Source: a virus. Taken from it: a DNA stretch of 38,708 nucleotides. A program made the position numbers and the translations under genes. This document shows positions 6,037 to 20,932 of this stretch, in pieces (position 1 is the first letter of the stretch; every line of letters begins with the position of its first letter). The notes below the pieces were generated by a model, which saw only the letters and a list, made by a program, of their open reading frames with translations, made no database searches and was not told the DNA's origin. Location: positions 1 through 38,708 of IMG/VR virus record IMGVR_UViG_3300006128_000024; one strand, 5' to 3'.

Positions 6037-6057
6037 GTACATTCATAATTTTTAATT

Positions 6058-6082
6058 GGGCTTGTTTCTACAAGCCCTTTTT
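6058..6082 (+). terminator. intrinsic terminator after the vWA gene
   Basis: GGGCTTG and CAAGCCC form a perfect 7-bp stem around a 6-base loop (TTTCTA), followed by five T on the plus strand. The convergent minus-strand membrane protein gene ends inside the hairpin (stop at 6068). Confidence 0.85.
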
Positions 6083-6388: not shown

Positions 6389-6588
6389 TTAAATTCTGTT
6401 CTTTCAATTCCTGCAATATCTAACATATTTAAATGTCCGATTTGTTTATCACGTTCAAAAGAATAATTTTTATTTTTTGAAATTTGATCATGTGATTTAC
6501 CTTGTAACCTTAATGCCTCAACTAATTTAAGAAGATAATTATTTTGTTCTTTCGCTTTATTATAAAGTCTCTTTTTTAATTCCTCCAT
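6376..6588 (-). CDS. hypothetical protein, 70 aa
   Basis: A small charged, probably helical protein with no recognised domain. It is the first gene of a two-gene reverse cassette, 23 bases downstream of a strong match to the TAGATAAA-N8-TANNTTTG promoter, and it overlaps the membrane protein gene. The promoter placement supports the ATG at 6588. Confidence 0.6.
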   Translation of the reverse strand: MEELKKRLYNKAKEQNNYLLKLVEALRLQGKSHDQISKNKNYSFERDKQIGHLNMLDIAGIERTEFNWIF

Positions 6589-6611
6589 TTTATTTATTTT
6601 TGTTTACTCTA

Positions 6612-6635
6612 CAAAGTTAGTAATTTTTTTATCTA
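6612..6635 (-). promoter_or_regulatory. bipartite phage promoter (TAGATAAA-N8-TAACTTTG)
   Basis: TAGATAAA and TAACTTTG on the minus strand with exactly 8 bases between them, 23 bases upstream of the 70-aa gene. The downstream context GTAGAGTAAACAAA is nearly identical to that of the PARP-gene promoter at 25869-25892. Confidence 0.75.
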
Positions 6636-6645
6636 CTTTTTTGTT

Positions 6646-6667
6646 TTTACAATAATTAAAAATAAAA
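6646..6667 (+). promoter_or_regulatory. candidate late promoter of the tail sheath gene
   Basis: A 22-base block (TTT followed by ACAATAATTAAAAATAAAA) lies just upstream of the sheath ATG at 6675. The same 22 bases occur upstream of the tube gene (11459-11480) and the 398-aa neck-like gene (13205-13226), which is far beyond chance even in AT-rich DNA. It could be a late promoter giving a very short leader, or a shared leader/translation element. Confidence 0.6.
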
Positions 6668-6674
6668 GAAATAA

Positions 6675-9600
6675 ATGGCAACTAAAATAACAAATGTTAA
6701 TAATCAAATTTCATCAGGAATTACTTTTTCTGAGAATGATTTAACAGTGGTACAACAACAAGCAGCAGGGTTTAGTGCTGCTGCTATTGTATTAACAGAA
6801 AAAGGACCAGCTTTTGAAATAACTAAAACCGCAACATTCCCTGAAAGAAAATTAAGATTAGGTGATTTAAATCCTAAATATCTTAGTTCGTATTATGCTA
6901 GACAATTTTTAGAACAATCAAATAATTATAAAGAAGTAAGATTGCTTGGTTTAGAAGGGTATAGTAATGATAATGGTTATGTGATTAGTTATGCTGCTCC
7001 AGCAGATACAAAAAACAATTATCCTGCTAATAGTGGGAAAGTGGAAATAGCTGCATACGTTCAACCAGGAAGTGTTTATGCGATTTTAAAATCTAGAAAT
7101 CTAGTTGATTTAGGCTTTAATCCTGCAATTTCAATTGCATCTGTTTTTATTGAAAATAATGCAAACGATTCATCTTTTCAATTAACAATTAATTATATAA
7201 GTTCTAATGATGTTCCTGCACCAGCAAGTCAAAAGATTACATTATCTTTAAGGCCTTCTAGCAAAGATTATATTGTTAAAAAAATGTGGGATGTACCTTT
7301 TAAGTTAGATGCTAATGAAAATATAATTTTCCCAACAATTAATGGAAAAATTTTCCCTTTATGGGTTGATTTTATAGTTCCTTCAACAGTTTCTAGACCT
7401 AATCTTTCATTAGATTTAGGTTATTATTTACCTGGTACAAAAACTATTGCACCTAATTCATTAATTCCATTAACTCAAGGAGACATTACTTTTGCAGCAA
7501 GTGAATTAGAATTTACTAAAACTTTAACGATTTATACGGAAACTGATATTTTACCAAGCGATCCTTCTGCATCATCACATTTAGATGAATTACATCAAAT
7601 GAAAGGAGCTACTTATACACCTAGTTCTTTTGACTTACAAGATGGTGGTACAGGTTATTATGATTATACTTTAACTGATTCCGCAATGCAACAAATTAAT
7701 TCAAACCCATTTTCACAACAAAATATTTTTTCTGGAGATGAAAAAACACCTTTAGCTTTCAATTATATAATTAAAAGCACTGACAATAATTCAACTGCAT
7801 TTTTAGATAAAAATTCATTTGTTGAAGGTGCTGATGTTTCATTACTTTTTGCTTTATCATTAGATAATACAGATCCAGGCCCTTTTGGAAGTGAAACAAG
7901 ATCTGGAACTGTAACTGGAAGTGGTTATACTTTAACAGGTACAAATGGTTTAGGTTCTACTAATCTAAAAGGTATGTATGTTAGAGGAAATCATATTAGA
8001 CCTGGTTCAAAAGTTGTTGGTGCTTTAGGTGATACTGTTACGCTTGATTTATCACTTTTATCATCATTTGACTCAAGTGAAACAGTTTATTTTTCAGTAT
8101 ATCCTTATTTTCAAAATTATTTTAATAGTACAAAATTAAAAATTAAAAATTTAGCTACAACTACAATTAATAATTTTACAAATGTATTACAACCAAGAAT
8201 AATTGAAACAATTTATCATAAAGATACAGAAGGTGTTGATACAAATACTACTAATGATAATGGAGACGAACTTTTTAGATTTACTGATTTTTACGAAACT
8301 TTTTGGAATGGAGTAAGTCAAGGTACAACTAATTTAGACCCTTATGTTGATACAACTGCTACAAGCTTACCAACACCTGATGATGTTACAACTGTATATC
8401 CTGAGACAACTACTGTTATTAAATATTCATTTAATTTAGCTTACGAAAATGATTTAGGAAATTTAGTTTCTGTTGCACCTATTGATCTTGGAATTGATAG
8501 CGAAACTGTTGCAAATTTTAAAAATATTTCTGTTAATATAAATTCAAGTCAAGGAGGTCAAAATTATTTTACAATTCCTCAAAATGCTGGAACATTATAT
8601 TTTTATACCCCAATTGCTTCAAGTATTGAAAAAACATTTGATACACATTGGAAAAATCAAACAACGCAATTAAACACACAATATCAAACACCATTAACAC
8701 CTTGGTTTGTTTCTGATTTTAACTCAGATGGTGATTATAAAAGATTATTTAAATTTCAAAGTATAAGTGATGGTAATTCAGCTAATTTTGAAATAAAAAT
8801 TGAGATAGCAAATATTAATCCTTTAGGAAATCAAGAGAATGGAACTTTTGATGTAAATATTAGGTTATTTAATGATACTGAAGATACGCAAAAACAATTA
8901 GTTGAGTCATTCACTAATTGTACTATGGATAAAACTTCTTCAAATTATATTTTAAGAAAAATAGGTAATGGTGAAGATTTTCCAAATCAAAGTAAATGGA
9001 TAGTTTTAGTATTAAATACTGAGCAAGAATTTGATGGTAATGAATTGCCTTATGGAGTTGAAGGATATAATACATTATATAGCAATGAATTATTAAATAT
9101 AAATTTCACAACAGAATATGATTTGTCTAGAAGTATTGCTAATCAAACTTTAGGTTTAGCAAATAATTCAATTAATGCAAATGGTCAATTACCAAGTAGT
9201 CAATTAAGTTATTTTAAACCTAATTCTGGTGAAACAATTAAAGGGAAAGGGTTTCACTTAAACCCTGAGAATATTATTTTAAATAATATTAATAAAGAAT
9301 TTAATTTAGTAAATCAAAGTATTTATCAAAAAAGCAATATTGATACAAATAGAGCAACACCTGTTCAGATAAAACAACGTTCAAAATTTGTTGTTGCTTT
9401 TCAAGGTGGTTTTGATGGTTGGAATGTTTATAAACAAAGAACATTTGGTGTTTATAATTCTCCAGATTATAATTCATTATTATTAGCAGTTAATTTATTA
9501 TCTGATAATGAAACTTTACAATCTGATTTTTCTGTATTAGTAACTCCAGATTTTTATTTAGATACTGATTCAGCAGCTAATGAATTGGTTTTACAAATGT

Positions 9601-10322
9601 GTGAAAATAGAGGTGATTGTTTATATATTCCTGATTTTATGTATGATTTAATTTCTTTACCACAAACATTTGCTGATGCTATTAATGCTTCAAATTTATT
9701 GAGCTCTTATGCAGCAGTTTATACTCCATGGTTACAAATTGAAGATACTATAAATCAAATAAATGTTTGGAACCCAGCATCAATATTAGCTTTAGGTACT
9801 ATTGCTTATGTTGCACAAAATCAAAATGTATGGCAACCACCTGGAGGTTCTATTAAGACTGTTACAAATCACTTAGTTCAAAGTAGAAGAAGGATGACTT
9901 TACCTGATAGGGAGATTTTAAAAGCAGCAAATATTAATCCTATTACTTATTTTGCAGGAAGTGGTTATGAGATAACTGAAGTTAGAACTACACAACCAGT
10001 ATTTTCTGCATTATCTTTTATTCATAATAGATTATTATTAGGATACGCTAAAAAAGCATTAAATCAAGTATTAAGGCCATTATTATTACAACTTAATGGA
10101 GCTATTGGTGCTGACGCTTTTAAAACAGCAGTTGAACCAATTTTTAATAGAATTAAAAAATTAAATGGTTTAGAACAATATCAAATAACTGTTAATGATA
10201 GTACTGGTGGAACTGATGTCACTAAATTAAGTGGAACAATAACAATGGTGCCTTTATATCCGATTGAACAAATCGAAGTTCAATTTGATCTTGTGAATAA
10301 TTCATTTACGTTCAATCAATAA
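6675..10322 (+). CDS. contractile tail sheath protein (very large, 1215 aa)
   Basis: The C-terminal part (about 880-1215) has the classical sheath order: FVVAFQGGFDGWNVYK, then VWQPPGG, RRRMTLPDREILKAANINPI, a GSGYEI block, the RTTQPVFSALSFIHNRLL segment, and a final domain ending IEQIEVQFDL. The N-terminal 95 residues also resemble sheath proteins (AAIVLTEKGPAFEI, YYARQFLEQS). Between them lies about 780 residues rich in Asn, Ser and Thr, probably surface-exposed insertion domains. At 1215 aa it is nearly twice the size of the T4 sheath (gp18, about 660 aa). The protein polymerises around the tail tube and contracts to drive it through the cell envelope. It sits next to the tube gene, as in most myoviruses, has its own late-type upstream motif and is followed by a 13-bp hairpin. 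Confidence 0.93.
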   Translation: MATKITNVNNQISSGITFSENDLTVVQQQAAGFSAAAIVLTEKGPAFEITKTATFPERKLRLGDLNPKYLSSYYARQFLEQSNNYKEVRLLGLEGYSNDNGYVISYAAPADTKNNYPANSGKVEIAAYVQPGSVYAILKSRNLVDLGFNPAISIASVFIENNANDSSFQLTINYISSNDVPAPASQKITLSLRPSSKDYIVKKMWDVPFKLDANENIIFPTINGKIFPLWVDFIVPSTVSRPNLSLDLGYYLPGTKTIAPNSLIPLTQGDITFAASELEFTKTLTIYTETDILPSDPSASSHLDELHQMKGATYTPSSFDLQDGGTGYYDYTLTDSAMQQINSNPFSQQNIFSGDEKTPLAFNYIIKSTDNNSTAFLDKNSFVEGADVSLLFALSLDNTDPGPFGSETRSGTVTGSGYTLTGTNGLGSTNLKGMYVRGNHIRPGSKVVGALGDTVTLDLSLLSSFDSSETVYFSVYPYFQNYFNSTKLKIKNLATTTINNFTNVLQPRIIETIYHKDTEGVDTNTTNDNGDELFRFTDFYETFWNGVSQGTTNLDPYVDTTATSLPTPDDVTTVYPETTTVIKYSFNLAYENDLGNLVSVAPIDLGIDSETVANFKNISVNINSSQGGQNYFTIPQNAGTLYFYTPIASSIEKTFDTHWKNQTTQLNTQYQTPLTPWFVSDFNSDGDYKRLFKFQSISDGNSANFEIKIEIANINPLGNQENGTFDVNIRLFNDTEDTQKQLVESFTNCTMDKTSSNYILRKIGNGEDFPNQSKWIVLVLNTEQEFDGNELPYGVEGYNTLYSNELLNINFTTEYDLSRSIANQTLGLANNSINANGQLPSSQLSYFKPNSGETIKGKGFHLNPENIILNNINKEFNLVNQSIYQKSNIDTNRATPVQIKQRSKFVVAFQGGFDGWNVYKQRTFGVYNSPDYNSLLLAVNLLSDNETLQSDFSVLVTPDFYLDTDSAANELVLQMCENRGDCLYIPDFMYDLISLPQTFADAINASNLLSSYAAVYTPWLQIEDTINQINVWNPASILALGTIAYVAQNQNVWQPPGGSIKTVTNHLVQSRRRMTLPDREILKAANINPITYFAGSGYEITEVRTTQPVFSALSFIHNRLLLGYAKKALNQVLRPLLLQLNGAIGADAFKTAVEPIFNRIKKLNGLEQYQITVNDSTGGTDVTKLSGTITMVPLYPIEQIEVQFDLVNNSFTFNQ

Positions 10323-10330
10323 TATTTAAA

Positions 10331-10366
10331 AATAAGAAGAAGTTGGAATTAATACTTCTTCTTATT
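10331..10366 (+). terminator. hairpin after the tail sheath gene
   Basis: AATAAGAAGAAGT and ACTTCTTCTTATT form a perfect 13-bp stem with a 10-base loop, 9 bases after the sheath stop. There is no T-run after it, so it may be a transcription attenuator or an mRNA-stabilising hairpin rather than a full terminator. Confidence 0.6.
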
Positions 10367-10394
10367 CTAATAAAGAAAATTAAATTAATTTAAA

Positions 10395-11441
10395 ATGACA
10401 AGAAATAATCAATCAATCAATATTTTAGTTGGACAAACTTTAAAAAAGTTAAATAAACCTAAAATTAACGAAGTTGAATTTTTAGTAAATAAAATATTAA
10501 AGGAATCAAAACAAACTGAACAATTAGGTTTAAGCCTTCTTAAAAAAGCTGGAGTTGATAATCCAGAAGCAATAATTAAAGTTTTTGCACAAAAAGACGA
10601 ATCAAAAAATCAAAAAAATATTCCCATAATGGCATTTATTTTTGCAAATTGGGAGGAAAAAGATGAAAATAATATTGCTAATGTTTTAAATGAGTTTAAT
10701 GATTTAGAAACTAAAAATAGAGTAAAATCTATACAAATTGCTGGATCAGATTTAAAAATTGGGAATAAACCATTTAAAGATTTTATAAATTTTGCTGGCT
10801 TTATACACGCAGAAAAAAACAAATATGCTGATAAAAGTAGTGATGCTAGTGTAGATATTAGTGAATTAGAACCAATGGAAAAACCACTTTGGAGTGGAAA
10901 TGGAATAGATGTATATGAAGCACATGATGTTGGTAAATGTATTAGATATACTCAAGGTGGTTTAACAGGTAAAGGATATAGTTTTTGTATTGGCCAACCT
11001 GGAAGTGGAATGTTTCATTCTTATAGAGCATCAAAAGATTCAACTTTCTTTTATGTAATTGATAAAAATCATATGAAAGAAAACCCTGATGGAACTTTAG
11101 ATATGAGTGACCCATTACATATTGTTGTTTTTGATAGAACAAAATATGGTTTAGAATGTACTGATGCTGATAACCATTGCCCTGCTGAATTAGCAGCACC
11201 TTATGGTAAAGATTTTGATAAATATGAAAGATATTTAGAATCAAAAGGTGTTCCTGTTGATGATCTTATAAATAAACCAAAAACTCCAGAAGAAATAGAA
11301 GAACAAAGAATTTTAGGTAAACAAAATAATAGTTTAGAATGGTTTAAAAATTTATCTTTTGATTATAAATCTAAATATATTGGTAGAGGACATCCTTTAA
11401 CAGATGAACAATTTGATTATTTAATTGGTAGAGAAGATTAA
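10395..11441 (+). CDS. virion-module protein of unknown function, 348 aa
   Basis: It lies between the sheath and tube genes, so a virion or tail-assembly role is likely. Residues 27-37 carry FLVNKILKESK, a short motif shared with two other late proteins (LVEKILQEAK at the start of the gene at 14563, LVEKILKEA inside the gene at 19526). The central region (about 160-270) has Trp/Cys/Tyr-rich blocks (LWSGNGIDVY, YSFCIGQPGSGMFHSYR, STFFYVIDKN, DPLHIVVFDR) of a kind I have seen in uncharacterised large-phage proteins. The C-terminus ends in a helical PLTDEQFDYL element resembling the repeats of the tandem paralogues downstream. No enzymatic motif can be named with confidence. Confidence 0.65.
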   Translation: MTRNNQSINILVGQTLKKLNKPKINEVEFLVNKILKESKQTEQLGLSLLKKAGVDNPEAIIKVFAQKDESKNQKNIPIMAFIFANWEEKDENNIANVLNEFNDLETKNRVKSIQIAGSDLKIGNKPFKDFINFAGFIHAEKNKYADKSSDASVDISELEPMEKPLWSGNGIDVYEAHDVGKCIRYTQGGLTGKGYSFCIGQPGSGMFHSYRASKDSTFFYVIDKNHMKENPDGTLDMSDPLHIVVFDRTKYGLECTDADNHCPAELAAPYGKDFDKYERYLESKGVPVDDLINKPKTPEEIEEQRILGKQNNSLEWFKNLSFDYKSKYIGRGHPLTDEQFDYLIGRED

Positions 11442-11458
11442 ATTAAAAAACATATTTT

Positions 11459-11480
11459 TTTACAATAATTAAAAATAAAA
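11459..11480 (+). promoter_or_regulatory. candidate late promoter of the tail tube gene
   Basis: The same 22-base block as at 6646-6667 (core TACAATAATTAAAAATAAAA), ending 3 bases before the tube ATG at 11484. The spacing to the ATG differs between copies (0, 3 and 7 bases), which fits a promoter with a very short leader better than a ribosome-binding element. Confidence 0.6.
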
Positions 11481-11483
11481 ATA

Positions 11484-11981
11484 ATGGCTAAAAATAGTGT
11501 ATTCAGTGGCGTTCCAGACCAATTTCCACCATTAAAAGTTGACCTTTGGTCATTGATTTTTCCGGTTGATATGGGTATTTCAGAAAAATTTGAAGTGAAA
11601 GCTGCTAGGCCTAAAGTTACAAATGAAGTAAAAGAAGTTAAATATAAAAATTCTATATTCAAATATCGTGGCACTACTAAATTTGGTAGTATGCAAATTG
11701 AATTTAGAGATGTTGTAGGTTACGCTGTAATGTCTAAACTTTGGTTATGGCAAAGACAACATTATGACCCTGCAACAGGTTGTGCTGGTTTACCATCACA
11801 ATATAAAAAAGAATTAATTCTTTATATGGAAGATGATTGTGGTAATCCTGTTCAATGTTGGATTTTACATGGAGCTTTTATTGAAGAGCTTGATGGTGGT
11901 AGTTTAGATATGGATTCAACGAATGAAGTCGCAAAAGTTACAATGACACTTGCTTATGATTGGGCTGAAAATCCTTGGTAA
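11484..11981 (+). CDS. tail tube protein (T4 gp19-like)
   Basis: 165 residues, the usual size for T4-type tube proteins. Recognisable features are the N-terminal FPPLKVDLWSLIFP segment, a central FKYRGTTKFGSMQIEFRD strand pair and the C-terminal WILHGAFIEELDGGSLDM ... VTMTLAYDW block, which matches the conserved end of gp19-like tube proteins (W-x-L-x-G-(A/C)-F-(P)-x-x-(I/L)). It forms the inner tube through which DNA passes during infection. It lies directly after the sheath region, has its own late-type upstream motif and is closed by an intrinsic terminator. Confidence 0.88.
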   Translation: MAKNSVFSGVPDQFPPLKVDLWSLIFPVDMGISEKFEVKAARPKVTNEVKEVKYKNSIFKYRGTTKFGSMQIEFRDVVGYAVMSKLWLWQRQHYDPATGCAGLPSQYKKELILYMEDDCGNPVQCWILHGAFIEELDGGSLDMDSTNEVAKVTMTLAYDWAENPW

Positions 11982-12005
11982 TTTTTAAATTCAATTTTTC
12001 GCATA

Positions 12006-12020
12006 TACAATAATTCAAAA
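12006..12020 (+). promoter_or_regulatory. orphan copy of the late-promoter-like motif (TACAATAATTCAAAA)
   Basis: It differs by one base from the core upstream of the sheath, tube and neck genes. It lies 24 bases after the tube stop and runs directly into a terminator, so it faces no gene on the plus strand until 13227. It mirrors the orphan copy at 6022 on the other side of a reverse cassette. Confidence 0.4.
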
Positions 12021-12045
12021 GAGGAATTTCTATTCCTCTTTTTTT
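12017..12045. terminator. bidirectional intrinsic terminator between tube and AAA genes
   Basis: AAAAGAGGAAT and ATTCCTCTTTT form an 11-bp stem with a 4-base loop, with T-runs on both strands. It serves the tail tube gene (plus) and the convergent ATPase gene (minus, stop at 12030). Confidence 0.85.
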
Positions 12046-12626
12046 ATCTTTAATTGTGATTTAATAAAATTCTTTGATTTCATCCATTTTTTATGCTCTA
12101 AAGAATAAACGTTTTCAAATTCATTTATTATAATACTTGAATGAGTAGCAACAAATATTTGACATTGTTTTTCTGATGCTAATTCTTTTATTTTTCTCGC
12201 AAATCTTAGTTGGTTCCTTATTGATAAACCAGATTCAGGTTCATCAGACAAAAGAATAACTTTTTCAAATGTATTAAGTGCATTTATTGTTACACCAACT
12301 AATGCTTCTCCATGAGAACAAAAATGGCTTGCTACTACAAACATTGAGTTTGCTTCTTTTTGTACTCTTGGATTCATTTTTTCAGAATCGAAATATTGTA
12401 CAGAAACACCATTTTGTATAGCTAATTTGCTTAAATTAATATCTAACCATTCAGTATTTCTTTCGTTAATAGATTTTTTTTGTAAAGTTGACAATAAAGT
12501 AGATTTTCCTACACCTTGGTCACCTACTAAAAGGTTTATACCAGGTACACAATCTAATTTAAAACCTTTTTTAAAACAAAAATGATCTGTATTTACTTCA
12601 ATAGATTCAATATAACTTATTTCCAT
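12030..12626 (-). CDS. small ABC/RecF-type ATPase
   Basis: About 198 residues from the ATG at 12626. A further in-frame start at 12668 would place the start inside a hairpin, so the shorter form is preferred. Motifs in order: Walker A GDQGVGKST; a region lacking the usual coiled-coil insertion; signature-like GEALVG; Walker B VILLSDEPESGLS; H-loop FVATHSS. This is the layout of compact AAA ATPases related to RecF/OLD/ABC heads. Phage homologues are often anti-defence or nuclease-associated, but no nuclease partner is adjacent. It forms the second reverse cassette in the late module, with the 93-aa gene upstream. Confidence 0.8.
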   Translation of the reverse strand: MEISYIESIEVNTDHFCFKKGFKLDCVPGINLLVGDQGVGKSTLLSTLQKKSINERNTEWLDINLSKLAIQNGVSVQYFDSEKMNPRVQKEANSMFVVASHFCSHGEALVGVTINALNTFEKVILLSDEPESGLSIRNQLRFARKIKELASEKQCQIFVATHSSIIINEFENVYSLEHKKWMKSKNFIKSQLKIKKEE

Positions 12627-12641
12627 ATTTTTTAAAATTTT

Positions 12642-12673
12642 AAAAAGTAGGGTATATTTCAACCCCACTTTTT
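12642..12673. terminator. hairpin upstream of the ATPase gene
   Basis: AAAAAGTAGGGT and ACCCCACTTTTT form a 12-bp stem with one A-C mismatch around an 8-base loop, with A/T-runs flanking on both strands. It lies between the 93-aa gene and the ATPase ATG, so it may stop or attenuate transcription before the ATPase gene. Confidence 0.5.
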
Positions 12674-12791
12674 GATTATCACCCGCATAAATTTTGCCAT
12701 ATTTCTATGACCCAAAACAAAAATAATAATTATTCATTATATAATTAATATTATTTTGTAAAATTAAGAAAAATTTTTATATCTTTTTATT

Positions 12792-13073
12792 TTACACATT
12801 ATTTTTTTCAAATTTTTGACAAATTAATTTATCAACTTTATCATAATTATCATCTAAATATTTTTGTATTACGATAATCTCTTCTTGTGTAAATCCTTCG
12901 TTTATCCATTCAATAGTATCACCACAGGTAATATAATAATTATGAGTTGCTAAATATTTAGCACCCCATGCTTCACCACTATCTTCACCAGAATCTTCAT
13001 TAGTTGGTGTACCAAAGAAAGTAACACTTATTTCATCTTCTTTATAAGGAATTTCAATAATTAATTTTTCCAT
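12792..13073 (-). CDS. hypothetical protein, 93 aa
   Basis: A small acidic protein with a strand-rich N-terminus (LIIEIPY, ISVTFFGTP), an acidic EDSGEDSGEAWG loop and a helical C-terminal end (QEEIIVIQKYLDDNYDKVDKLI). Not recognised. It has its own bipartite promoter 20 bases upstream and belongs to the reverse cassette with the ATPase. Confidence 0.6.
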   Translation of the reverse strand: MEKLIIEIPYKEDEISVTFFGTPTNEDSGEDSGEAWGAKYLATHNYYITCGDTIEWINEGFTQEEIIVIQKYLDDNYDKVDKLICQKFEKNNV

Positions 13074-13093
13074 AATTTTTATTTTTTACAATA

Positions 13094-13117
13094 CAAAAAT
13101 AAAGAAAAATTTATCTA
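13094..13117 (-). promoter_or_regulatory. bipartite phage promoter (TAGATAAA-N8-TATTTTTG)
   Basis: Both boxes are perfect with the 8-base spacing, 20 bases upstream of the 93-aa gene. Confidence 0.7.
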
Positions 13118-13204
13118 CTTTTATAGTTTTTTACTAAAATCGTAAAATAAAAAATTTGGTTAAGCATTTTATACGGGTATATGAGTTTTTAGATCCTTTA
13201 GAAA

Positions 13205-13226
13205 TTTACAATAATTAAAAATAAAA
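13205..13226 (+). promoter_or_regulatory. candidate late promoter of the neck-like gene
   Basis: The 22-base late block (core TACAATAATTAAAAATAAAA) ends directly at the ATG at 13227, so if it is a promoter the mRNA is practically leaderless. Confidence 0.6.
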
Positions 13227-14423
13227 ATGTATTTGGATATAACTGAAGATGAATTACAAATTATACTTGAAGAAATTGTAACATTTCTTGGAGGTTATGA
13301 AATTGATGTAGATCTAACGAAACCTGAAGTTGTAGTAGCTTTAAGATATGCTCTTATGAAGTTTGAAAAAGAAACTTCTGTATGGCAATTAAAAAATCAA
13401 TTTATTAATGTATATGGCCAACAAGCAGGGGCAGTAATGAGTAATCAATTAGCAACTATAAATTTTAGTTTTGTAAAACAAATCACAGATTGGTTTGCTA
13501 CTATGACTAGAGTTGGTGGTAAAGTACCTTGGCATAAAGATTATATTATTTTACAAGGTGGAAGACAGGTTTATTATTTAGATAAAGAAAGTTCAAAACC
13601 TTATCAAAGTGGTACAAGAAGAATTCATAGAGTTATGTGGTATATGAAACCTGAATTAATCAATAGTGCTCATTATAATGATTATAATCAAAATGGTGAT
13701 GATATTCTATATAGTAATGCTTGGAACTTTTCTAATAATGGTTTAAATTATGGAAATAATAGATTAGGTTTTCTTGGTTATGCTTTTGATACTATGTTAA
13801 TGATGCAATCTATGGAAACTAGAAATAGATTATTTTTTAGTGAATTTTTTCATAATTTAAGTGGAGATGTTTTAGAAATCACCCCAACACCTGGAAGCAA
13901 TCCTTCTTTAAAAAATGGTGATAAAATATTTTATTATTATTGGGAAGAAGAAGAATTATTAGCAGGAAGGGGTTTAGAAAAATATTTTGATGGTCAAAGT
14001 GTTTTAGAAGATCCTAATAACCCTAATTTAGGAAATGGATTAGATCAATTACCACCCGGACAATATAATTTAATTGCTAATCCATTAGATATGACATTAA
14101 ATATGGTGAATTGGAGTGCTTTATCACCTTGGGCTATAGCATTTGTAAAAGATTTAGCTTTTGCTAAATGTAAATATATACAAGGTTCTAAATGGAGAAA
14201 AATTCAAAAGACAATGGCAGGAGGGGAAATGAATTATGAAATTACTTTTGATTATAATTCTATTTTAAGCGAAGCAAGTACAGAAGAACAAAATATAATT
14301 GAAGCGTTGAAAAAAGATTTAGATGAATTAAATATTTCAACATTAATGGAAAATCAAGCAAAAACAGTTCAATCAACTAGAGAAATAAATAAAAATCAAC
14401 CTAGACTTTGGAAATTTATGTAA
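13227..14423 (+). CDS. virion structural protein, probable neck/connector, 398 aa
   Basis: A 398-residue protein with a helical N-terminus (LQIILEEIVTFLGGYEIDVDL, then ALRYALMKFEKET), a central Trp/Tyr-rich region (VPWHKDYIIL, RIHRVMWYMKPELI, FFYYWEEEELLAGR) and a C-terminal segment with WAIAFVKDLAFAKCKYIQGSKW. The N-terminal helices and the FAKCKYIQGSKW block resemble neck or head-tail adaptor proteins of large myoviruses. Position after the tube gene, its own late-type upstream motif and a related structural gene at 15018 support this. The exact role (neck, adaptor or baseplate) cannot be fixed from sequence alone. Confidence 0.55.
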   Translation: MYLDITEDELQIILEEIVTFLGGYEIDVDLTKPEVVVALRYALMKFEKETSVWQLKNQFINVYGQQAGAVMSNQLATINFSFVKQITDWFATMTRVGGKVPWHKDYIILQGGRQVYYLDKESSKPYQSGTRRIHRVMWYMKPELINSAHYNDYNQNGDDILYSNAWNFSNNGLNYGNNRLGFLGYAFDTMLMMQSMETRNRLFFSEFFHNLSGDVLEITPTPGSNPSLKNGDKIFYYYWEEEELLAGRGLEKYFDGQSVLEDPNNPNLGNGLDQLPPGQYNLIANPLDMTLNMVNWSALSPWAIAFVKDLAFAKCKYIQGSKWRKIQKTMAGGEMNYEITFDYNSILSEASTEEQNIIEALKKDLDELNISTLMENQAKTVQSTREINKNQPRLWKFM

Positions 14424-14424
14424 A

Positions 14425-14533
14425 ATGACAAATAAAGATTTAATTAAGCAATACAATTTTTAATAATAAAGGAAAAATAATTTTAAATAAAAAAACAATT
14501 ATACCTAAAAATTATATATTTCATAATAAATAG
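14425..14533 (+). pseudogene. internally deleted, frameshifted member of the MTNKDLIKQY paralogue family
   Basis: Starting one base after the previous stop, the sequence reads MTNKDLIKQY and then hits a stop at 14461. In another frame the following bases encode FNNKGKIILNKKTIIPKNY before a stop at 14531, which matches the IPDDFVFNNKGIINF / VIFNNKTV type repeats of the intact paralogue at 18125. This is therefore the fused head and tail of a deleted copy, not an intergenic spacer. Confidence 0.75.
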
Positions 14534-14562
14534 GTTGAATATGTTCAAAAAGAATATTGGTA

Positions 14563-15018
14563 ATGACATTAGTAGAAAAAATATTACAGGAGGCAAAACA
14601 AGTTGGAATAATTTATCATTATTCAACTATAATGCGAATTTTAATAATTTTAGAAGATATGAAATTAAAAGATTCGATATACAATAGAGGATATGTTTCT
14701 TTTACACGATATAAAAATGGAATAAAGGGTCAAGGAGCGAATTTTGCTAGGTTAGTAATCGATGGTGATAAATTATCTAATAAATATAAAATTGTACCAG
14801 ATTCAAGAGCAAAAGCAGGAGAAAAATATGGTCCAATTAAACATCATTTAAATTTACAATCTGAAGAAAGGATTTATAAAAAAGAAGTTGATTTAACAGG
14901 TTGTATAATTTCTGTAGATATAATAAAAAGTTATGCACATGATGAAATGAATAAAAATGATGCTGAGTTTATTAAATCAAAATGCAAATTAAATATAATT
15001 GATAAAAAAGATTGGTAA
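14563..15018 (+). CDS. ADP-ribosyltransferase-like late protein, 151 aa
   Basis: Start chosen at the ATG at 14563 (a TTG two codons earlier is less likely). The protein opens with the shared late-protein motif TLVEKILQEAK. The remainder has the order IIYHYSTIMRILIIL, RGYVSFTR, ARLVIDGDKL and SEERIYKK, which resembles the H ... (S-F-T) ... E layout of small ART-fold proteins found in phages. This assignment is tentative. It is followed by the next gene with a TAATG overlap (stop and start share an A), so both are translated together, and both lie among virion genes, so the protein may be packaged and injected. Confidence 0.5.
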   Translation: MTLVEKILQEAKQVGIIYHYSTIMRILIILEDMKLKDSIYNRGYVSFTRYKNGIKGQGANFARLVIDGDKLSNKYKIVPDSRAKAGEKYGPIKHHLNLQSEERIYKKEVDLTGCIISVDIIKSYAHDEMNKNDAEFIKSKCKLNIIDKKDW

Positions 15019-15560
15019 TGAAATTAGCTCATAAAAATACAAAAGATGGTAGGTTATATTTTGGGGATAAAGATGCTGCTTATCTTAAGAAATTATCAAG
15101 AACGGCAGTAGAAGATCATCATGATTCTGAAATACTTTATTTTGAAATTGATTATGTAAATAGTCAAAAAAACTTTTATGGTGAATTATTAATGAAAAAT
15201 TTTAAACATCCTAAAGGGATCCCAATTCTTGGTTCTTATAAAATAGAAGAAGGTTCTGAAACAATGTTTCAAGGAATACCTAGTAAACTTTTGAAATTAA
15301 ATGTTTCAGTTTATATTGATCAATTAAAAGAAAAAGGAATAGACCCACAATTAGGAGATTATTTTTCTATTGGGCAAAGAATGTATTTAATTTGGAATAG
15401 AAGTATAAACGACACAGGTGTAGGAACATTAATGTTTAAAAGAGGAAGAATTAGACAAGATTTTTTTTGTTATGATGATGACTTTGAAGTACTTAACTCT
15501 AATTTGTTTGACCCAAATATTGGTTCAGAACAAGAAATTTATCCACAAAATATAATATAA
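15018..15560 (+). CDS. virion structural protein, possible head-completion/neck protein, 180 aa
   Basis: Start chosen at the ATG at 15018, which overlaps the preceding TAA (TAATG). The protein is strand-rich: YFEIDYVNSQKNFYGELL near residue 40, then a domain with QLGDYFSIGQRMYLIW and a C-terminal MFKRGRIRQDFF segment. The pattern resembles neck or tail-completion proteins of T4-like and jumbo phages, and its place between the neck-like gene and the paralogue array agrees. No enzyme motif is seen. Confidence 0.5.
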   Translation: MKLAHKNTKDGRLYFGDKDAAYLKKLSRTAVEDHHDSEILYFEIDYVNSQKNFYGELLMKNFKHPKGIPILGSYKIEEGSETMFQGIPSKLLKLNVSVYIDQLKEKGIDPQLGDYFSIGQRMYLIWNRSINDTGVGTLMFKRGRIRQDFFCYDDDFEVLNSNLFDPNIGSEQEIYPQNII

Positions 15561-15562
15561 TA

Positions 15563-15864
15563 ATGACGAACAAAGAATTAATTAAACAGTATATTAATAA
15601 TAGACAATTTATTACTGAATATCAATTTAATAAATTGTCTAATTCTGAGAAAAAATCTTATCTTAGAGCTAGAATATTAGGTTTAGTTCGAATAATAATT
15701 TTATAGTACCTATAAAAGTTTGGGAATTTGTAAATCTTTCTGACAAACAAAAAATAGAAATTGCTTCTTTAAGGAAAAAATTACTTGATAATATTTATAA
15801 ACTTCTAAATAAAGAACAGAAGAAAATATATTGGGAAACTTATATGGAAAACAATCTTAATTAA
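15563..15864 (+). pseudogene. frameshifted member of the MTNKDLIKQY paralogue family
   Basis: The first frame reads MTNKELIKQY ... QFNKLSNSEKKSYLRARILG and ends at a TAG at 15704. Shifting frame near 15690 restores an open frame (IVPIKVWEFVNLSDKQKIEI ... LLNKEQKKIYWETYMENN) up to a TAA at 15864 that carries the same repeat signature as the intact copies. One small indel has broken the gene. Confidence 0.8.
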
Positions 15865-15868
15865 ATAA

Positions 15869-16501
15869 ATGACAAATAAAGATTTAATAAAGCAGTATGT
15901 TAATAATGGAATTAGCATTCCAGAATATCAATTCAATAAATTAAATAGACAAGATAAGAAATCTTATCTTAGAGCTAGAATATTACAATTTAATCAAGGT
16001 GGAGTAATTTTACAAGATTATGAATTTAATTTATTAGATGAAAAAGAAAAAGAATTTTATGTAATAAAAAAATACAAAAATGAACGTCTTACATTTTCTG
16101 CGGAAGAAGAAAAATATCTTCCGATGGAAATGCTACAACAATACATTTATAAAAGAATTTTTTATAAAATGAGAATAACTGATTTTGATTATTCTTTAGT
16201 TGAACATACACATTTACAATTGAAATCTTTAGAAAATCTTGTAAATAATAGGGAAAGAATTTCTGTAAATAGATTAGAAAATTCAAATCTTGAGACTTTG
16301 GAATTATTTGTTAATAATTATAGAAATTATAATTTTGATAAAGAACAATTTTTAGCCTTACCTAATGAAATAAAAACAATCATATTAGATAGAAAAATAA
16401 AAAGTAATAATTTATCAATTAAAAGTTTTGAATATGATTTTTTAACTCCAGAACAAAAAGAAATTTATAATAATTTCTTGAATGATAATTTTAAGGGCTA
16501 A
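15869..16501 (+). CDS. tandem paralogue 1 (helical-repeat protein), 210 aa
   Basis: Member of the array whose proteins all begin MTN-K-(D/E)-LIKQY. The first about 45 residues (QFNKLNRQDKKSYLRARIL) are conserved between members; the rest diverges but keeps a unit of roughly 25 residues with the pattern (E/Q)F-x-x-L-(P/S/T)-x-(E/D)-x-K-x-x-(Y/I)-(L/I), for example QFLALPNEIKTIIL and EYDFLTPEQKEIYNNF. This predicts a helix-turn-helix solenoid in which the conserved N-terminus is itself repeat one. No enzyme motifs, membrane segments or cysteine clusters. The location in the late module suggests a virion-associated or late-expressed binding protein; its target is unknown. Confidence 0.7.
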   Translation: MTNKDLIKQYVNNGISIPEYQFNKLNRQDKKSYLRARILQFNQGGVILQDYEFNLLDEKEKEFYVIKKYKNERLTFSAEEEKYLPMEMLQQYIYKRIFYKMRITDFDYSLVEHTHLQLKSLENLVNNRERISVNRLENSNLETLELFVNNYRNYNFDKEQFLALPNEIKTIILDRKIKSNNLSIKSFEYDFLTPEQKEIYNNFLNDNFKG

Positions 16502-16532
16502 AGGAATTCTAAATAATATTTAATAAATACTA

Positions 16533-16625
16533 TTATTTCTAATTTTAAACGATTAAATTTCAATTATAATATAATTTATAAATAAAGTATTTAAAAAATA
16601 AAAATAACGTTTAAAACGTTTTAAA
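16533..16625 (+). repeat. duplicated leader, copy A (upstream of paralogue 2)
   Basis: About 90 bases nearly identical to 17253-17337 (shared stretches include TTATTTCTAATTTTAA and GATTAAATTTCAATTATAAT). It ends in a near-palindrome AACGTTTAAAACGTT (7-bp arms) just before the ATG. It probably carries the regulatory signals of paralogues 2 and 3 and marks a recent tandem duplication. Confidence 0.8.
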
Positions 16626-17249
16626 ATGACAAATAAGGATTTAATAAAACAATATGTCAATACAGGTAGGAGAATTTCAAAGAATCAATTTGATAAACTT
16701 TCTACACAAGATAAAAAATCTTATCTAAGAGTAATTTTAAGAAGTTTTGAAACTGATGAAATTCCTTTAGCTGATTATGAATTTGATTATTTAAGTAAAG
16801 AAGAAAAAGAAAAATATGTAGAAAAAAAATTTAGATTAGACTATACAGTTTTTACTGATAATGAATTAAATTATTTACCAATACAACTTATTTATCAATA
16901 TATTTTTAAAAGAATAAGTTATGGGTACCCTACAACTGATTTTGAATATTCTTTTGTAAAAGATGCAATTATACAACTTGAAATTTTGAATAGTTTAAAA
17001 AATAATAGTTGTATAATTTCTCCGTTTAAAATAAAAAATTCAAATTATGAAACTTTAGAAAAATTTATTTTAAGTATCAATAAAGCTAAAAGTAGGTATA
17101 TTTTCCATGAACAACAATTTTTAGCTTTACCTGATGAATTAAAAAAGGTTTATTTGGAAGGTAGAGTGGAAAATAATAGAGATATTAAAGAATATGAATT
17201 TGAATTTTTAACCCCTGAATTAAAAAAAGTTTATCTAAATTATCATTAA
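16626..17249 (+). CDS. tandem paralogue 2 (helical-repeat protein), 207 aa
   Basis: Begins MTNKDLIKQYVNTGRR, then QFDKLSTQDKKSYLR. It is closest to paralogue 1 along its whole length (both carry L-x-x-Y-I-(Y/F)-KRI, TDF-(D/E)-YS, QFLALP and FLTPE), so the two arose by duplication. Repeat units are visible as YEFDYLSKEEKEKYVEKKF, NELNYLPIQLIYQYIFKRI, QQFLALPDELKKVYLEGRV and YEFEFLTPELKKVYLNYH. No function is recognised. It has its own leader, a copy of which precedes the next gene. Confidence 0.7.
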   Translation: MTNKDLIKQYVNTGRRISKNQFDKLSTQDKKSYLRVILRSFETDEIPLADYEFDYLSKEEKEKYVEKKFRLDYTVFTDNELNYLPIQLIYQYIFKRISYGYPTTDFEYSFVKDAIIQLEILNSLKNNSCIISPFKIKNSNYETLEKFILSINKAKSRYIFHEQQFLALPDELKKVYLEGRVENNRDIKEYEFEFLTPELKKVYLNYH

Positions 17250-17252
17250 AGT

Positions 17253-17337
17253 GTTATTTCTAATTTTAACCGATTAAATTTCAATTATAATACATTTTAC
17301 AAATAAAGTATTTAAAAATAAAAAAATAACTTTTAAA
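17253..17337 (+). repeat. duplicated leader, copy B (upstream of paralogue 3)
   Basis: The second copy of the 16533-16625 leader, with a handful of substitutions and small indels, ending directly at the ATG of paralogue 3. Confidence 0.8.
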
Positions 17338-18135
17338 ATGACGAATAAAGATTTGATAAAACAATATGTTAATACCGGAAGAGAAATTAAACCTAAACAA
17401 TTTGATTTGTTATCTAATTCCGACAAAAAAACTTATTTAAGAGCAAGATATATAAATTTTGAATCAAAAGCTAGAGAAAATGAATATTTTGAATTTGAAG
17501 ATTTTGAATTCATACATTTACCAGATGATAAAAAAAATAAATATATTAAATATGTTTTGGATAACCCTGAACATTGTTTTTTAAATTCAAGATTACAATT
17601 TGAATCTTGTTCAAAAGAAGAACAAATAGAATATGTTACTTATAAAATTTCATATTTTCATAAACCAAGAAATTATGAAATGGCGGTTTTACCTGATGAA
17701 ATAAAAAGGGATTATTTTAATAATCAAATGAAAAACTGGAATTTTTCATTTTTTGAAGATGATTTATTTGTTTTAATGCCTGAAGATATAATGGAAAAAT
17801 ATATTCATTTACAAATTTCAGAAGGTAATTTATTATCAAATTTACAATTTAAATGTTTGAATGAAGAATTACAAAATAAATATTTAGAAAATGTAAAAGG
17901 GCCTATTTCTAAATATCAAATGGATTTAATGTCTGAAAAAGAATTTGATGATTATATTAAAAGAAATTATAGAAACGCATTTACCTTTGGAGAAATTGAA
18001 ATTGATTATTGGAATAAATGTAATGAAGAACAAAAGAAATTCTTAGTTCAAAAATTAGCTTTAGTTATAGGTAAAAATCGTTTAAAAAGTAAAGAATTAA
18101 ATATTTTTAATAAATATCAAATGAATGACGAATAA
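17338..18135 (+). CDS. tandem paralogue 3 (helical-repeat protein), 265 aa
   Basis: The longest and clearest repeat protein of the array, with about nine units including N-terminal QFDLLSNSDKKTYLRARYI, then FEFIHLPDDKKNKYIKYVL, LQFESCSKEEQIEYVTYKI, YEMAVLPDEIKRDYFNNQM, DLFVLMPEDIMEKYIHLQI, LQFKCLNEELQNKYLENV and YQMDLMSEKEFDDYIKRNY. The spacing of aromatic/Leu and Tyr positions fits two short helices per unit. The gene's end overlaps the start of the next paralogue by 11 bases. Function unknown; the family looks like a binding scaffold with variable surface. Confidence 0.75.
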   Translation: MTNKDLIKQYVNTGREIKPKQFDLLSNSDKKTYLRARYINFESKARENEYFEFEDFEFIHLPDDKKNKYIKYVLDNPEHCFLNSRLQFESCSKEEQIEYVTYKISYFHKPRNYEMAVLPDEIKRDYFNNQMKNWNFSFFEDDLFVLMPEDIMEKYIHLQISEGNLLSNLQFKCLNEELQNKYLENVKGPISKYQMDLMSEKEFDDYIKRNYRNAFTFGEIEIDYWNKCNEEQKKFLVQKLALVIGKNRLKSKELNIFNKYQMNDE

Positions 18136-18901
18136 GGAATTAATAAAACAATATTGTAACACAGGTTTAAAAATCTCGGAATATCAGTTTGAAAAATTAT
18201 CTAATCAAGACAAAAAAACTTATCTTAGAGCAAGGGTAATTGGCGTTAGTACAGATGAAAAATATCATAAATTAGATTTATGGGAATTAGATTTGTTACC
18301 TGAGATAAAAGAAAAATTTAAAATTCAACAATTAAAAAGATTTTACGATGTTATAAATTTTAGGGATTATTTTTATAATATGCTACCTAATGGATATACT
18401 GTTTTTAATACTGATGAAAATTTAGATTTTTCTATGTTTAGATTTATTCCTGATAAAATAATATTTAAAAAAAAATGTGATGTATTATTTAATAAATTAA
18501 TTGAATTACCTAAAAATATAGAATTTTATAATGAGGATATACAATTTGGAGAAACAATTATACCGGATGATTTTGTTTTTAATAATAAAGGTATTATAAA
18601 TTTCGATAATGCAAGTAATCTTGGGAAAAATGTGATTTTTAATAATAAAACTGTTTGGTTAAGCGGTTTAAAAACTTTACCTGAAGGAATACAATTTAAT
18701 AATACAGGTAATGTCGGTTTATATGATTTAGAAATTTTACCTGAGAATTTCGTGTTTGATAAAAATATATTGAATGTTATATTATACAATATTAAAGAAA
18801 TTCCAGAAAGTGTAATATTTAATAATCAAAAATGGGTAAAAATTAAAACAACAACTAAATATCCTGAAAATTTAGAGGATAAAATATATTTTATGCAATG
18901 A
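18125..18901 (+). CDS. tandem paralogue 4 with LRR-like C-terminal repeats, 258 aa
   Basis: It shares the N-terminal module (MTNKELIKQYCNTG ... QFEKLSNQDKKTYLRARVI), but after residue about 110 switches to a different, roughly 21-22-residue repeat of the form (L/I)P-(E/D)-x-x-x-F-x-N-x-x-x-(V/I)-x-L-x-x-(L/I): for example IPDDFVFNNKGIINF, VIFNNKTVWLSGLKTLPE, GIQFNNTGNVGLYDLEILPE and NFVFDKNILNVILYNIKEIPE. This is a beta-solenoid or leucine-rich-repeat-like arrangement, so the array mixes a constant head with different tails. The ATG overlaps the previous gene, and the stop overlaps the next ATG (ATGA). Confidence 0.75.
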   Translation: MTNKELIKQYCNTGLKISEYQFEKLSNQDKKTYLRARVIGVSTDEKYHKLDLWELDLLPEIKEKFKIQQLKRFYDVINFRDYFYNMLPNGYTVFNTDENLDFSMFRFIPDKIIFKKKCDVLFNKLIELPKNIEFYNEDIQFGETIIPDDFVFNNKGIINFDNASNLGKNVIFNNKTVWLSGLKTLPEGIQFNNTGNVGLYDLEILPENFVFDKNILNVILYNIKEIPESVIFNNQKWVKIKTTTKYPENLEDKIYFMQ

Positions 18902-19515
18902 CAAACAAAGACTTAATAAAACAGTATTGTAATACAGGAATTAAAATTCCTTATAGCCAATTTGATAAATTATCGACATCTTTACAAAAAACTTATTTAA
19001 GAATGAGGTTTATTGCTTGTAAAGATGATTTAGAAGAATTGGTACCTTATGAATTTAATTTATTACCTCAAGAAAAAATATTAGAAATTTTAAAATTATG
19101 TGCTGATAATAGAATTGATTTAAATTGGTTTATTTTTCAAAATTTAACTTCTGAAAATAGAAAAATTTATTTAGACTTTTGTTTGGAGTCTAGAGGAGCT
19201 TCTAATATGAGCTATTATATTAAATTTATGACTTTAGAACAACAAAAAAAATATATTGATGAATTTATTAGTAATGATATTTTACCTGGAAGTTCATTTT
19301 TTGAAAATTTGGATAAAGATAATTTAAGATATTATTATCAGAAAAAAATGATAATGAATATTGATCAAGATTCTATTTTTGATTTTGATGAAATAAATAA
19401 TCTTAGAAGGTTCCCTGATTTATTAGAAATTTATTTAAAAAGAATTTTGAAGTCAAGGCCTAATGATTTAATTGGGATAGAAAAAGTTTGTGCAAAACAA
19501 TTAAATTTAATTTAA
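18898..19515 (+). CDS. tandem paralogue 5 (helical-repeat protein), 205 aa
   Basis: Begins MTNKDLIKQYCNTG, then QFDKLSTSLQKTYLRMRFI. The tail returns to the helical ~25-residue unit (YEFNLLPQEKILEILKLC, FQNLTSENRKIYLDFCLE, IKFMTLEQQKKYIDEFI, FFENLDKDNLRYYYQKKM). It is translationally coupled to paralogue 4 through an ATGA overlap and is followed 10 bases later by the three-domain protein. No function is recognised. Confidence 0.7.
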   Translation: MTNKDLIKQYCNTGIKIPYSQFDKLSTSLQKTYLRMRFIACKDDLEELVPYEFNLLPQEKILEILKLCADNRIDLNWFIFQNLTSENRKIYLDFCLESRGASNMSYYIKFMTLEQQKKYIDEFISNDILPGSSFFENLDKDNLRYYYQKKMIMNIDQDSIFDFDEINNLRRFPDLLEIYLKRILKSRPNDLIGIEKVCAKQLNLI

Positions 19516-19525: not shown

Positions 19526-20932
19526 ATGTTAGATAAAGATTTTAATTCTTGGAAAAGAAAAAATGTGACATTAAGAGGGATAAAAGATAAATACGCTAGT
19601 GATAATGGTGGAATGGCAAAATATGGTCAAGGCCTTTATACAGCATTTTTAGGCAATAGGAATATGACTAAAGAATATGGTAAAGTTTACTTTGTCGTGA
19701 ATGCAATACCTAAACACCCAAAAATTGTTAATGATGTAAATGCAGCTGAAATGTTTTTACAAAATATAATAAATAATTGGTGTAAAAAACATAATATGAA
19801 ATATAATTCAGATTATTTTTATTCAAAAACAAATATCAAAGATGAAATGTTAAACCTTGGATATGATGGATTAGTTATTAAAGGAAGAGAGATGGTAAAT
19901 TATACTCCTCCTGATAATGTAAAATATTTTGAAAATATAACGCAACTTGAAAGATATTATGATAATTATGTAAAAAATAGTTTGGTTGAAAAAATATTGA
20001 AAGAAGCTAATGAAGTTAATGAAGAAGAATTCCCTAAAACTATTAAGGACGCATTAAAAATGTCTTGTGAAGTATATCCAGAAAATATTGATATTGATGT
20101 AGTAGAAAGAATAAATTGGATTATAAACCATAAATCTTGTGATAATGTAATTACTTCAAAAAGTAGAGATGGAATTAAAAGAGCTTGTTATTATAATAGC
20201 TTAAAATTTGCAAGAAAAAATAATTGCGATTTAGCTTTCGGTTATATAGTTAGAAAAGAAAATTTTAAAGATTATAAAGAATTATGTTATTATTACTCAA
20301 AAGTTTGGAAAAAACCAAATCATTTTCCAACTATGTATGGAGTTTATCATGCTTTTTGTTTTCATAATAACACTATTTATGAAACTACTCCAATAGATGG
20401 AATAGGAGACTTTATTTATTTTTATGAAATTATACCTAAAGAAATATGGAAAAATTTTAATTTTAAAGAAAATGATGAAGAATTTGACGCAACAGATTTT
20501 CACAGATATTGTATGAAATTAAAAAATGAAAAAAGCTATTTAAAAGAAAAGAAAATCCCTACACTTTCAATTTTCCCTTCTGCTTTATTTAATCGTTATG
20601 GATTTATTCAAAGGGATGTAACAAAATTTATTTCCATGAAAGATAAAGAAAACATTATTAATAAATTAGAGAAATTAAGAAAAACATCTGGAGAAGGTTT
20701 ACCTATTAAAAAAGTAAATCCAAGAATGTTAATTGCTACACAACAATCTATTGAATCAGATAATTTACAAGGTGTAAAACAATCTAATAAAAAACCTTTT
20801 GTAGTACAATTGAATAGGTGTCTCCTGCTCATTGATGGTCATCATAGGACTGCGAACGCAATTTTAGATGGATTACAATCAATAGATGTAAATTTTCTTA
20901 ACCTTGATAATTATGAAATCAAAACAATTTGA
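19526..20932 (+). CDS. three-domain late protein: ART-like, papain-like and ParB-like
   Basis: 468 residues. Residues 1-147 resemble phage ADP-ribosyltransferase-type domains (KYGQGLYTAFLGN at 32-44, GKVYFVVNA, then GYDGLVIKGREMVNYTPP at 112-129, ending NVKYFE). Residues 152-161 carry LVEKILKEA, a motif found near the N-terminus of two other late proteins. Residues 200-345 show C221 in ACYYNSLK and H275 in YGVYHAFCFHNNTIYETTP, a Cys ... His ... (D/E)-x-T layout of papain-fold proteins. Residues 395-462 look like a ParB/Srx-type domain with LLIDGHHRTANAILDGLQSI (436-454). The last gene pair of the late module is this protein and PhoH. A packaged multi-activity effector injected with the DNA is a plausible role; none of the activities is demonstrated. 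Confidence 0.6.
   Translation: MLDKDFNSWKRKNVTLRGIKDKYASDNGGMAKYGQGLYTAFLGNRNMTKEYGKVYFVVNAIPKHPKIVNDVNAAEMFLQNIINNWCKKHNMKYNSDYFYSKTNIKDEMLNLGYDGLVIKGREMVNYTPPDNVKYFENITQLERYYDNYVKNSLVEKILKEANEVNEEEFPKTIKDALKMSCEVYPENIDIDVVERINWIINHKSCDNVITSKSRDGIKRACYYNSLKFARKNNCDLAFGYIVRKENFKDYKELCYYYSKVWKKPNHFPTMYGVYHAFCFHNNTIYETTPIDGIGDFIYFYEIIPKEIWKNFNFKENDEEFDATDFHRYCMKLKNEKSYLKEKKIPTLSIFPSALFNRYGFIQRDVTKFISMKDKENIINKLEKLRKTSGEGLPIKKVNPRMLIATQQSIESDNLQGVKQSNKKPFVVQLNRCLLLIDGHHRTANAILDGLQSIDVNFLNLDNYEIKTI

What the first reader, a model, noticed from the sequence alone, without database searches (positions are those of the whole stretch)
14425..19515. Array of seven tandem paralogues with a constant head and variable repeat tails
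All begin MTN-K-(D/E)-LIKQY followed by a QF-x-K-L-S-x-x-x-K-(K)-x-YLR block, which is itself the first unit of a roughly 25-residue helical repeat that continues in the tails. One member swaps its tail for an LRR-like 21-22-residue repeat. I know no named family for this. A constant head plus diversifying binding tails inside a virion gene module suggests injected or virion-displayed binders under arms-race selection, for example against several host targets.
Basis: partly seen in the sequence, partly recalled or inferred. Interest (0 to 1): 0.72.

Follow-up and report, generated by a model that had tools for sequence, protein, structure and literature searches.

The report
Phage array of interchangeable binding arms
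An uncultured virus of bacteria carries a row of gene copies that keep the same front end but end in different spring-shaped, probably target-gripping tails; related viruses link such tails to proteins that look injected into the host, so this may be a toolkit for hitting several host targets, although none of it has been tested in the laboratory.

Summary
The head module MTNK(D/E)LIKQY occurs seven times at 14425-19515. Five copies are intact genes; two are broken (14425, 15563). Two unrelated ORFs sit between the broken copies. AlphaFold2 confirms a helical solenoid of about 27-residue units; the head is its cap and first unit. The head matches no Pfam, PHROG or NCBIfam family and no GenBank phage, but occurs in 17 further IMG/VR contigs, usually in tandem. 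Their tails are the same solenoid, LRR-like, or DUF4116 repeats. Heads are under purifying selection and tails diverge.

New here: the array has a partner gene. A conserved two-cysteine protein, one per contig, precedes an arm gene within 30 nt in 10 of 12 lineages. In the window it lies between the tail sheath and tube genes. Single-chain proteins in three contigs and an array in Salicola phage SCTP-2 join this type of cysteine domain to repeat tails, behind a peptide resembling T4's capsid-targeting sequence. One of these carries Pfam ART-PolyVal. The array follows a gene with a late-type leader also found before sheath and tube.

Best reading: interchangeable binding arms of a late, probably injected effector module. 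Virion location, docking and targets are unproven.

The parts
14425..14530 (+). relic copy: ten head codons joined out of frame to an LRR-like tail remnant
   Evidence: D2, D3
15563..15865 (+). broken copy: full head (about 46 codons), then frame break
15869..16501 (+). arm 1, intact, 210 aa, solenoid tail
   Evidence: tail 44% identical to arm 2
16626..17249 (+). arm 2, intact, 207 aa, solenoid tail
   Evidence: tail matches L068 27-aa repeats, E 3.8e-7
17338..18135 (+). arm 3, intact, 265 aa, solenoid of eight helix-pair units
   Evidence: AF2 mean pLDDT 84.5; tail matches L068 repeats, E 1.3e-7
18125..18901 (+). arm 4, intact, 258 aa, same head, LRR-like tail
   Evidence: counterpart with the same kind of tail in L008
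18898..19515 (+). arm 5, intact, 205 aa, solenoid tail
   Evidence: tail matches L068 repeats, E 4.8e-4
10395..11441 (+). partner: two-cysteine protein, 348 aa, CTS-like LVNKILKESK near the N-terminus, C-terminus ends with a half repeat LTDEQFDYLIG
   Evidence: profile E 1.4e-131; sequence; C-terminus
13205..13226 (+). 22-nt late-type leader immediately before the gene (13227-14423) that heads the array; identical copies at 6646-6667 (sheath) and 11459-11480 (tube)
   Evidence: 3 exact matches, 0.30 expected; also in contigs G001 and G002, reversed control 0
14563..15018 (+). neighbour inside the interval, not a paralogue: CTS-like MTLVEKILQEA followed by an ART-like domain (motif resemblance only)
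   Evidence: its relative L016:2859-3806 has Nudix 1.7e-10 and Tox-ART-HYD1 at a sub-threshold 0.009
15018..15560 (+). neighbour inside the interval, not a paralogue, no family
19526..20932 (+). neighbour: probable multidomain protein, ART-like start, internal CTS-like LVEKILKEA, ParB-like DGHHRTAN end (motif resemblance only)
   Evidence: no Pfam hit; resembles L102:1174-3969, where ART-PolyVal is significant and the ParB-like hit is below cut-off

Best explanation
The array encodes interchangeable binding arms of a late-expressed effector module. Each arm is a helical solenoid (or, in one case, an LRR-like tail) carried on one constant N-terminal cap. The arms work with a single two-cysteine protein encoded once per phage. 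That protein ends in the first half of a repeat unit, and the arm's cap begins with the second half, so the arms probably attach end-to-end to it and give one effector several specificities. The module is probably packaged in the virion and injected, as with T4 Alt and the T4 internal proteins. Duplication, tail exchange and loss by recombination at the conserved head renew the set. Shown: architecture, repeat fold, family spread, linkage to the Cys gene, single-chain fusions, late-type leader, purifying selection on heads. Inferred: docking, packaging, injection, target binding, any enzymatic role of the Cys domain.
For: Arm fold: AF2 solenoid, mean pLDDT 84.5. Family in 17 further contigs, mostly tandem. 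Partner: one full-length Cys protein per contig in 15 of 18 contigs and in the window, directly before an arm gene in 10 of 12 lineages. Single-chain versions: L018:6900-9008 joins a CTS-like start, a Cys-type domain, a head-like segment (E 7e-6 with Z=5) and DUF4116; L101 and L102 have the same order with other helical tails, their head-like segments recognised by eye only; L102 also carries ART-PolyVal, 2.6e-10. Salicola phage SCTP-2 has at least five single-chain paralogues with constant CTS-like plus Cys-type N-part and variable tails (Cys-type profile E 1.8e-9 to 2.2e-5 with Z=100). Virion context: sheath/tube, major head protein, baseplate, portal. Late-type leader. Selection. Half-unit: L, Q and F of the LxxxQF end are invariant in the Cys proteins compared; the C-terminal part scores best with the repeat profile in all twelve.
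Against: No virion proteomics for any member. The arm heads themselves have no CTS-like peptide. In the window the Cys gene lies 3 kb from the array, and contigs G001, G002 and G005 show no Cys gene (all may be fragments). The Cys domain is predicted at low confidence (pLDDT about 35-60), so no fold or enzyme can be named. The half-unit signal in each Cys protein alone is weak (0-37 of 200 shuffles as good). Docking was modelled only as a read-through chain and the junction has pLDDT below 50. Tail pN/pS above 1 is borderline.
Confidence: 0.45

Rival explanations
1. The arms act alone. Each is an independent injected or early-acting inhibitor of a host defence protein, like the T4 internal proteins; the shared head is just a solenoid cap or a packaging signal, and the Cys protein is only a neighbour.
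For: [quoted passage not shown] The head is under purifying selection. Contigs G001 and G002 have arms without a visible Cys gene.
Against: Tight linkage of arms to one Cys gene in 10 of 12 lineages; single-chain fusions of Cys-type domain and repeat tails; the head is part of the solenoid fold, unlike a short cleaved CTS.
Confidence: 0.25
2. The arms and the Cys protein are structural or assembly factors of the contractile tail or head, for example accessory tail or baseplate proteins; tail variety reflects binding to different virion parts.
For: The Cys gene lies between sheath and tube in the window and next to baseplate or capsid genes in L024 and L060; the late-type leader is shared with sheath and tube.
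Against: The position among virion genes changes from phage to phage; copy number runs from one to at least eight per contig; copies decay in the window; structural parts rarely vary like that. Neighbours and fusions carry ART, Nudix and ParB-like domains.
Confidence: 0.15
3. The arms are late intracellular proteins that are never packaged, for example binders that block superinfection or bind RNA; the best structural resemblance is to Pumilio-type RNA-binding solenoids.
For: Foldseek top PDB hits are PUF domains (3gvo, E 0.033, TM about 0.5); the model with DUF4116 repeats resembles PPR solenoids (E 0.008).
Against: No Foldseek hit reaches E 0.001; all-helical solenoids resemble one another; the association with CTS-like proteins points to packaging.
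Confidence: 0.1

Closest known systems
T4 internal proteins and Alt (packaged, injected; PMC3012670, PMC5512222)
   Same: constant N-terminal part with highly diverse remainder; late virion-gene context; neighbours with CTS-like N-termini, some ART-like
   Different: the arm head is about 38 aa and part of a solenoid, not a short cleaved CTS; no sequence relation found; one separate Cys partner
Polyvalent proteins of phages (Iyer et al. 2017, PMC5512222)
   Same: a single-chain relative (L102) carries Pfam ART-PolyVal above cut-off with other domains in one chain; predicted injection
   Different: the window arms are single-module proteins in tandem, separate from the Cys protein
DUF4116 repeat proteins (Pfam PF13475; Salicola phage SCTP-2, Agrobacterium phage Atu_ph07)
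   Same: several relatives fuse the same head to DUF4116 repeats; SCTP-2 has paralogues with a constant N-part of CTS-like peptide and Cys-type domain and DUF4116 or other tails
   Different: no window arm has DUF4116; SCTP-2 proteins are single-chain, and the MTNK-type head was not seen in the six SCTP-2 proteins read
PUF/Pumilio and PPR solenoids
   Same: all-helical solenoid shape at low score
   Different: no significant structural or sequence match

Membership tests
T4-type internal proteins / capsid-targeted proteins | short N-terminal CTS cleaved by the prohead protease | tested here: not met
   arm N-termini are the MTNKDLIKQY solenoid cap; CTS-like peptides occur in neighbours and in the Cys protein only. 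Cleavage itself is not testable here.
T4-type internal proteins / capsid-targeted proteins | present in the virion head and injected | not testable with these tools
   no proteomics for these uncultured phages
Polyvalent proteins | several disparate effector domains in one chain | tested here: not met
   arms have head plus repeats only; related single-chain L102:1174-3969 does combine several domains
DUF4116 (PF13475) | Pfam match above the gathering score | tested here: not met
   no match in window arms; relatives with the same head do match, 1.8e-29 and 3.3e-7
LRR proteins (arm 18125-18901) | LRR consensus and Pfam match | tested here: inconclusive
   LPE-type units spaced 20-21 aa; no Pfam match; not modelled
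PUF RNA-binding proteins | significant structural or sequence match to PUF repeats | tested here: not met
   Foldseek E 0.033, none at 0.001 or better; no Pfam match
Head family found here | 40-column head profile match | tested here: met
   five intact and two broken copies in the window; 17 other contigs

The most novel reading that the evidence does not exclude
A combinatorial injected effector: one packaged Cys-domain protein docks, by completing a split solenoid repeat in trans, with any of several arms from a tandem, recombining gene array, so one effector is aimed at several host targets.
Probability: 0.25. Interest if true: 0.82.

Novelty: new variant of a known kind. Interest (0 to 1): 0.62.

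Why it matters
If right, phages have a modular, rapidly renewed set of binding arms for injected effectors, split from the effector itself. That would give a simple way to find what each arm grips in the host, and possibly new defence proteins. It also gives a family, a partner gene and a context to proteins that are unannotated in large-phage genomes, including DUF4116 arrays in isolated phages such as SCTP-2.

Tried and rejected
Profile searches of arms in Pfam, PHROGs and NCBIfam: no family. GenBank phages by DNA and tblastn: no match for window DNA, arm 2, the head or an L068 arm. GTDB genome scan with the head profile: no confirmed relative (one short peptide pattern only). PDB by sequence: nothing convincing. 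T4-type late promoter TATAAATA before array genes: only one exact site, near 16626, rejected as a general signal. Single 27-aa-unit HMM from L068 against window tails: weak and uneven; whole-tail comparison was clear instead. First alignment for the read-through model misplaced arm rows and was replaced. Stop-codon read-through from Cys gene to arm gene as a mechanism: rejected because the frame relation differs between contigs. A catalytic triad in the Cys protein (C, H, D): not claimed, since the histidine is not kept in the L053/L101 single-chain relative. Positive selection on DUF4116 units: not seen (0.84 and 0.59).

Full report
What is in the window. The window is an IMG/VR-type virus record of 38,708 bases, 24% GC, from a contractile-tailed phage. 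Sheath (6675-10322) and tube (11484-11981) have PHROG matches. The sheath's nearest matches in the phage collection are all below 60% identity, among them phages of Microcystis and Flavobacterium. Five minus-strand genes have a TAnnTTTG motif 23-31 bases upstream, which from general knowledge resembles Bacteroidota promoters; a Bacteroidota host is likely but not proven.

The array. The head occurs seven times. Five copies are intact genes with 205-265 codons. Two are broken: one of ten codons joined out of frame to an LRR-like tail remnant, and one with a frame break after the head. The frame breaks may be real or assembly errors; the LRR-like counterpart in contig L008 is also split over two frames. 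Genes 17338, 18125 and 18898 overlap by 4-11 bases, as in an operon. The DNA before arm 2 and the DNA before arm 3 share an 84-bp segment, 87% identical (D5), so whole units were duplicated.

Fold. AlphaFold2 on arm 3 with 20 relatives gave mean pLDDT 84.5 and pTM 0.71: a cap helix (3-11), then eight pairs of a short helix (4-6 residues) and a long helix, with a period near 27. The head's QFxKLSxxDKKTYLRxR block is the first pair. Foldseek found no match at E 0.001 or better; the best PDB hits are Pumilio-type solenoids.

Relatives. Head-profile scans found the family in 17 further IMG/VR contigs. Several are near duplicates, leaving about a dozen lineages. Tails differ: the same solenoid (contig L068 has at least eight arms in tandem with very regular 27-aa units), DUF4116 repeats (Pfam 1.8e-29), LRR-like, or other helical. 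Copy number varies from one to at least eight. In G001 the four copies are dispersed rather than clustered. No relative was confirmed in the GTDB genome scan or in GenBank phages.

Evolution. Head identity over 38 residues averages 0.82 within contigs and 0.53 between; tails within contigs 0.20-0.71. In the window the heads are 0.68 and the tails 0.27 identical. pN/pS is 0.37 for window heads, 0.24 for L068 heads and 1.54 for L068 tail units, with a bootstrap range of 0.95-3.82 for the last. Variable positions in the L068 unit avoid the F and LL core. DUF4116 units show 0.84 and 0.59, so positive selection is at most suggested in one contig.

The partner. In most contigs an arm gene directly follows a gene for a protein with two invariant cysteines (KCIxYTxGGLTGxxYSFCIGQPG..YxSYRD..FYFIVD). 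One full-length copy was found in each of 15 of 18 contigs and one in the window, at 10395-11441 between sheath and tube, E 1.4e-131. The gap to the arm gene is at most 30 nt, sometimes a TAATG overlap, in 10 of 12 lineages. In L024 a baseplate gene lies between, and in the window the distance is 3 kb. The protein ends in LTDEQFDYLIGK or close variants, a half repeat; the arm begins with the next half. Together they make about 26-27 residues, one period. The C-terminal part is the best-scoring stretch of all twelve Cys proteins with the repeat profile, although each score alone is weak. A read-through model of Cys protein plus arm from L060 shows the same helix order across the junction, but the junction and the Cys core have low confidence.

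Single-chain forms. L018:6900-9008 has a CTS-like start, a related Cys-type domain, a head-like segment and DUF4116 repeats in one chain. L101 and L102 have the same order with other helical tails, though the head profile itself does not reach threshold there; L102 adds ART-PolyVal (2.6e-10), an internal CTS-like peptide and a ParB-like end. Salicola phage SCTP-2 has at least five paralogues of constant CTS-like peptide plus Cys-type domain and variable tails. These support a functional link between Cys-type domain and repeat tails.

Expression and location. A 22-nt sequence occurs exactly three times in the window, directly before sheath, tube and the 13227 gene; 0.30 are expected. It recurs in G001 and G002 with a reversed control of zero. 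The array starts two bases after the 13227 stop, so it probably belongs to that late transcription unit. Elsewhere the module sits after the major head protein (L060), among baseplate genes (L024) or before the portal (L016). Neighbouring proteins in each contig share contig-specific N-termini ending in LxE or IxE, which resemble T4's capsid targeting sequences; the arms do not carry them.

Judgement. The architecture, the fold and the link to the Cys gene are solid. Packaging and injection are inferred from context and from the fusion with ART-PolyVal. Trans-docking is a hypothesis from the split repeat. What the arms bind is unknown.

Noticed in passing
window 6646-6667, 11459-11480, 13205-13226: Exact 22-nt leader TTTACAATAATTAAAAATAAAA before sheath, tube and 13227; also in contigs G001 and G002. 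Candidate late-gene leader of this phage group.
   Followed up: partly
window 6675-10322: Tail sheath protein of 1215 aa whose sheath match covers only residues 881-1213; a very large N-terminal addition of unknown function.
   Followed up: no
L018, L023, L053, L055, L066, L067, L068 and window 14563, 10395, 19526: Contig-specific N-terminal peptides ending in LxE/IxE shared by many unrelated neighbours (LLREGL, LVEKILQEA, LNEQIxRMKSIMGLNE and others), resembling capsid targeting sequences; internal copies in multidomain proteins may be cleavage sites.
   Followed up: partly
L099 (Salicola phage SCTP-2, MF360958.1) 3673-16611: At least five single-chain paralogues with constant CTS-like plus Cys-type N-part and variable repeat tails, annotated as hypothetical.
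   Followed up: partly
window 27532-38200, minus strand: RNA repair/tRNA cluster: RNA ligase (37202-38200), kinase/phosphatase-like 976-aa protein (27532-30462), tRNA-His guanylyltransferase (31060-31872).
   Followed up: no
L016:4770-8888 and L021:1041-2768 (minus): Portal gene interrupted by HNH/intein-like insertions, and a PhoH-like protein with an intein-like insertion, near the arrays.
   Followed up: no
L007:11959-12534 and L009:2123-2521: A second shared head (MTK(I/F)EKRK(I/L)I(F/K)ETISILRKKG) on different tails, one of them LRR-like, in the same contig as four arm genes.
   Followed up: no
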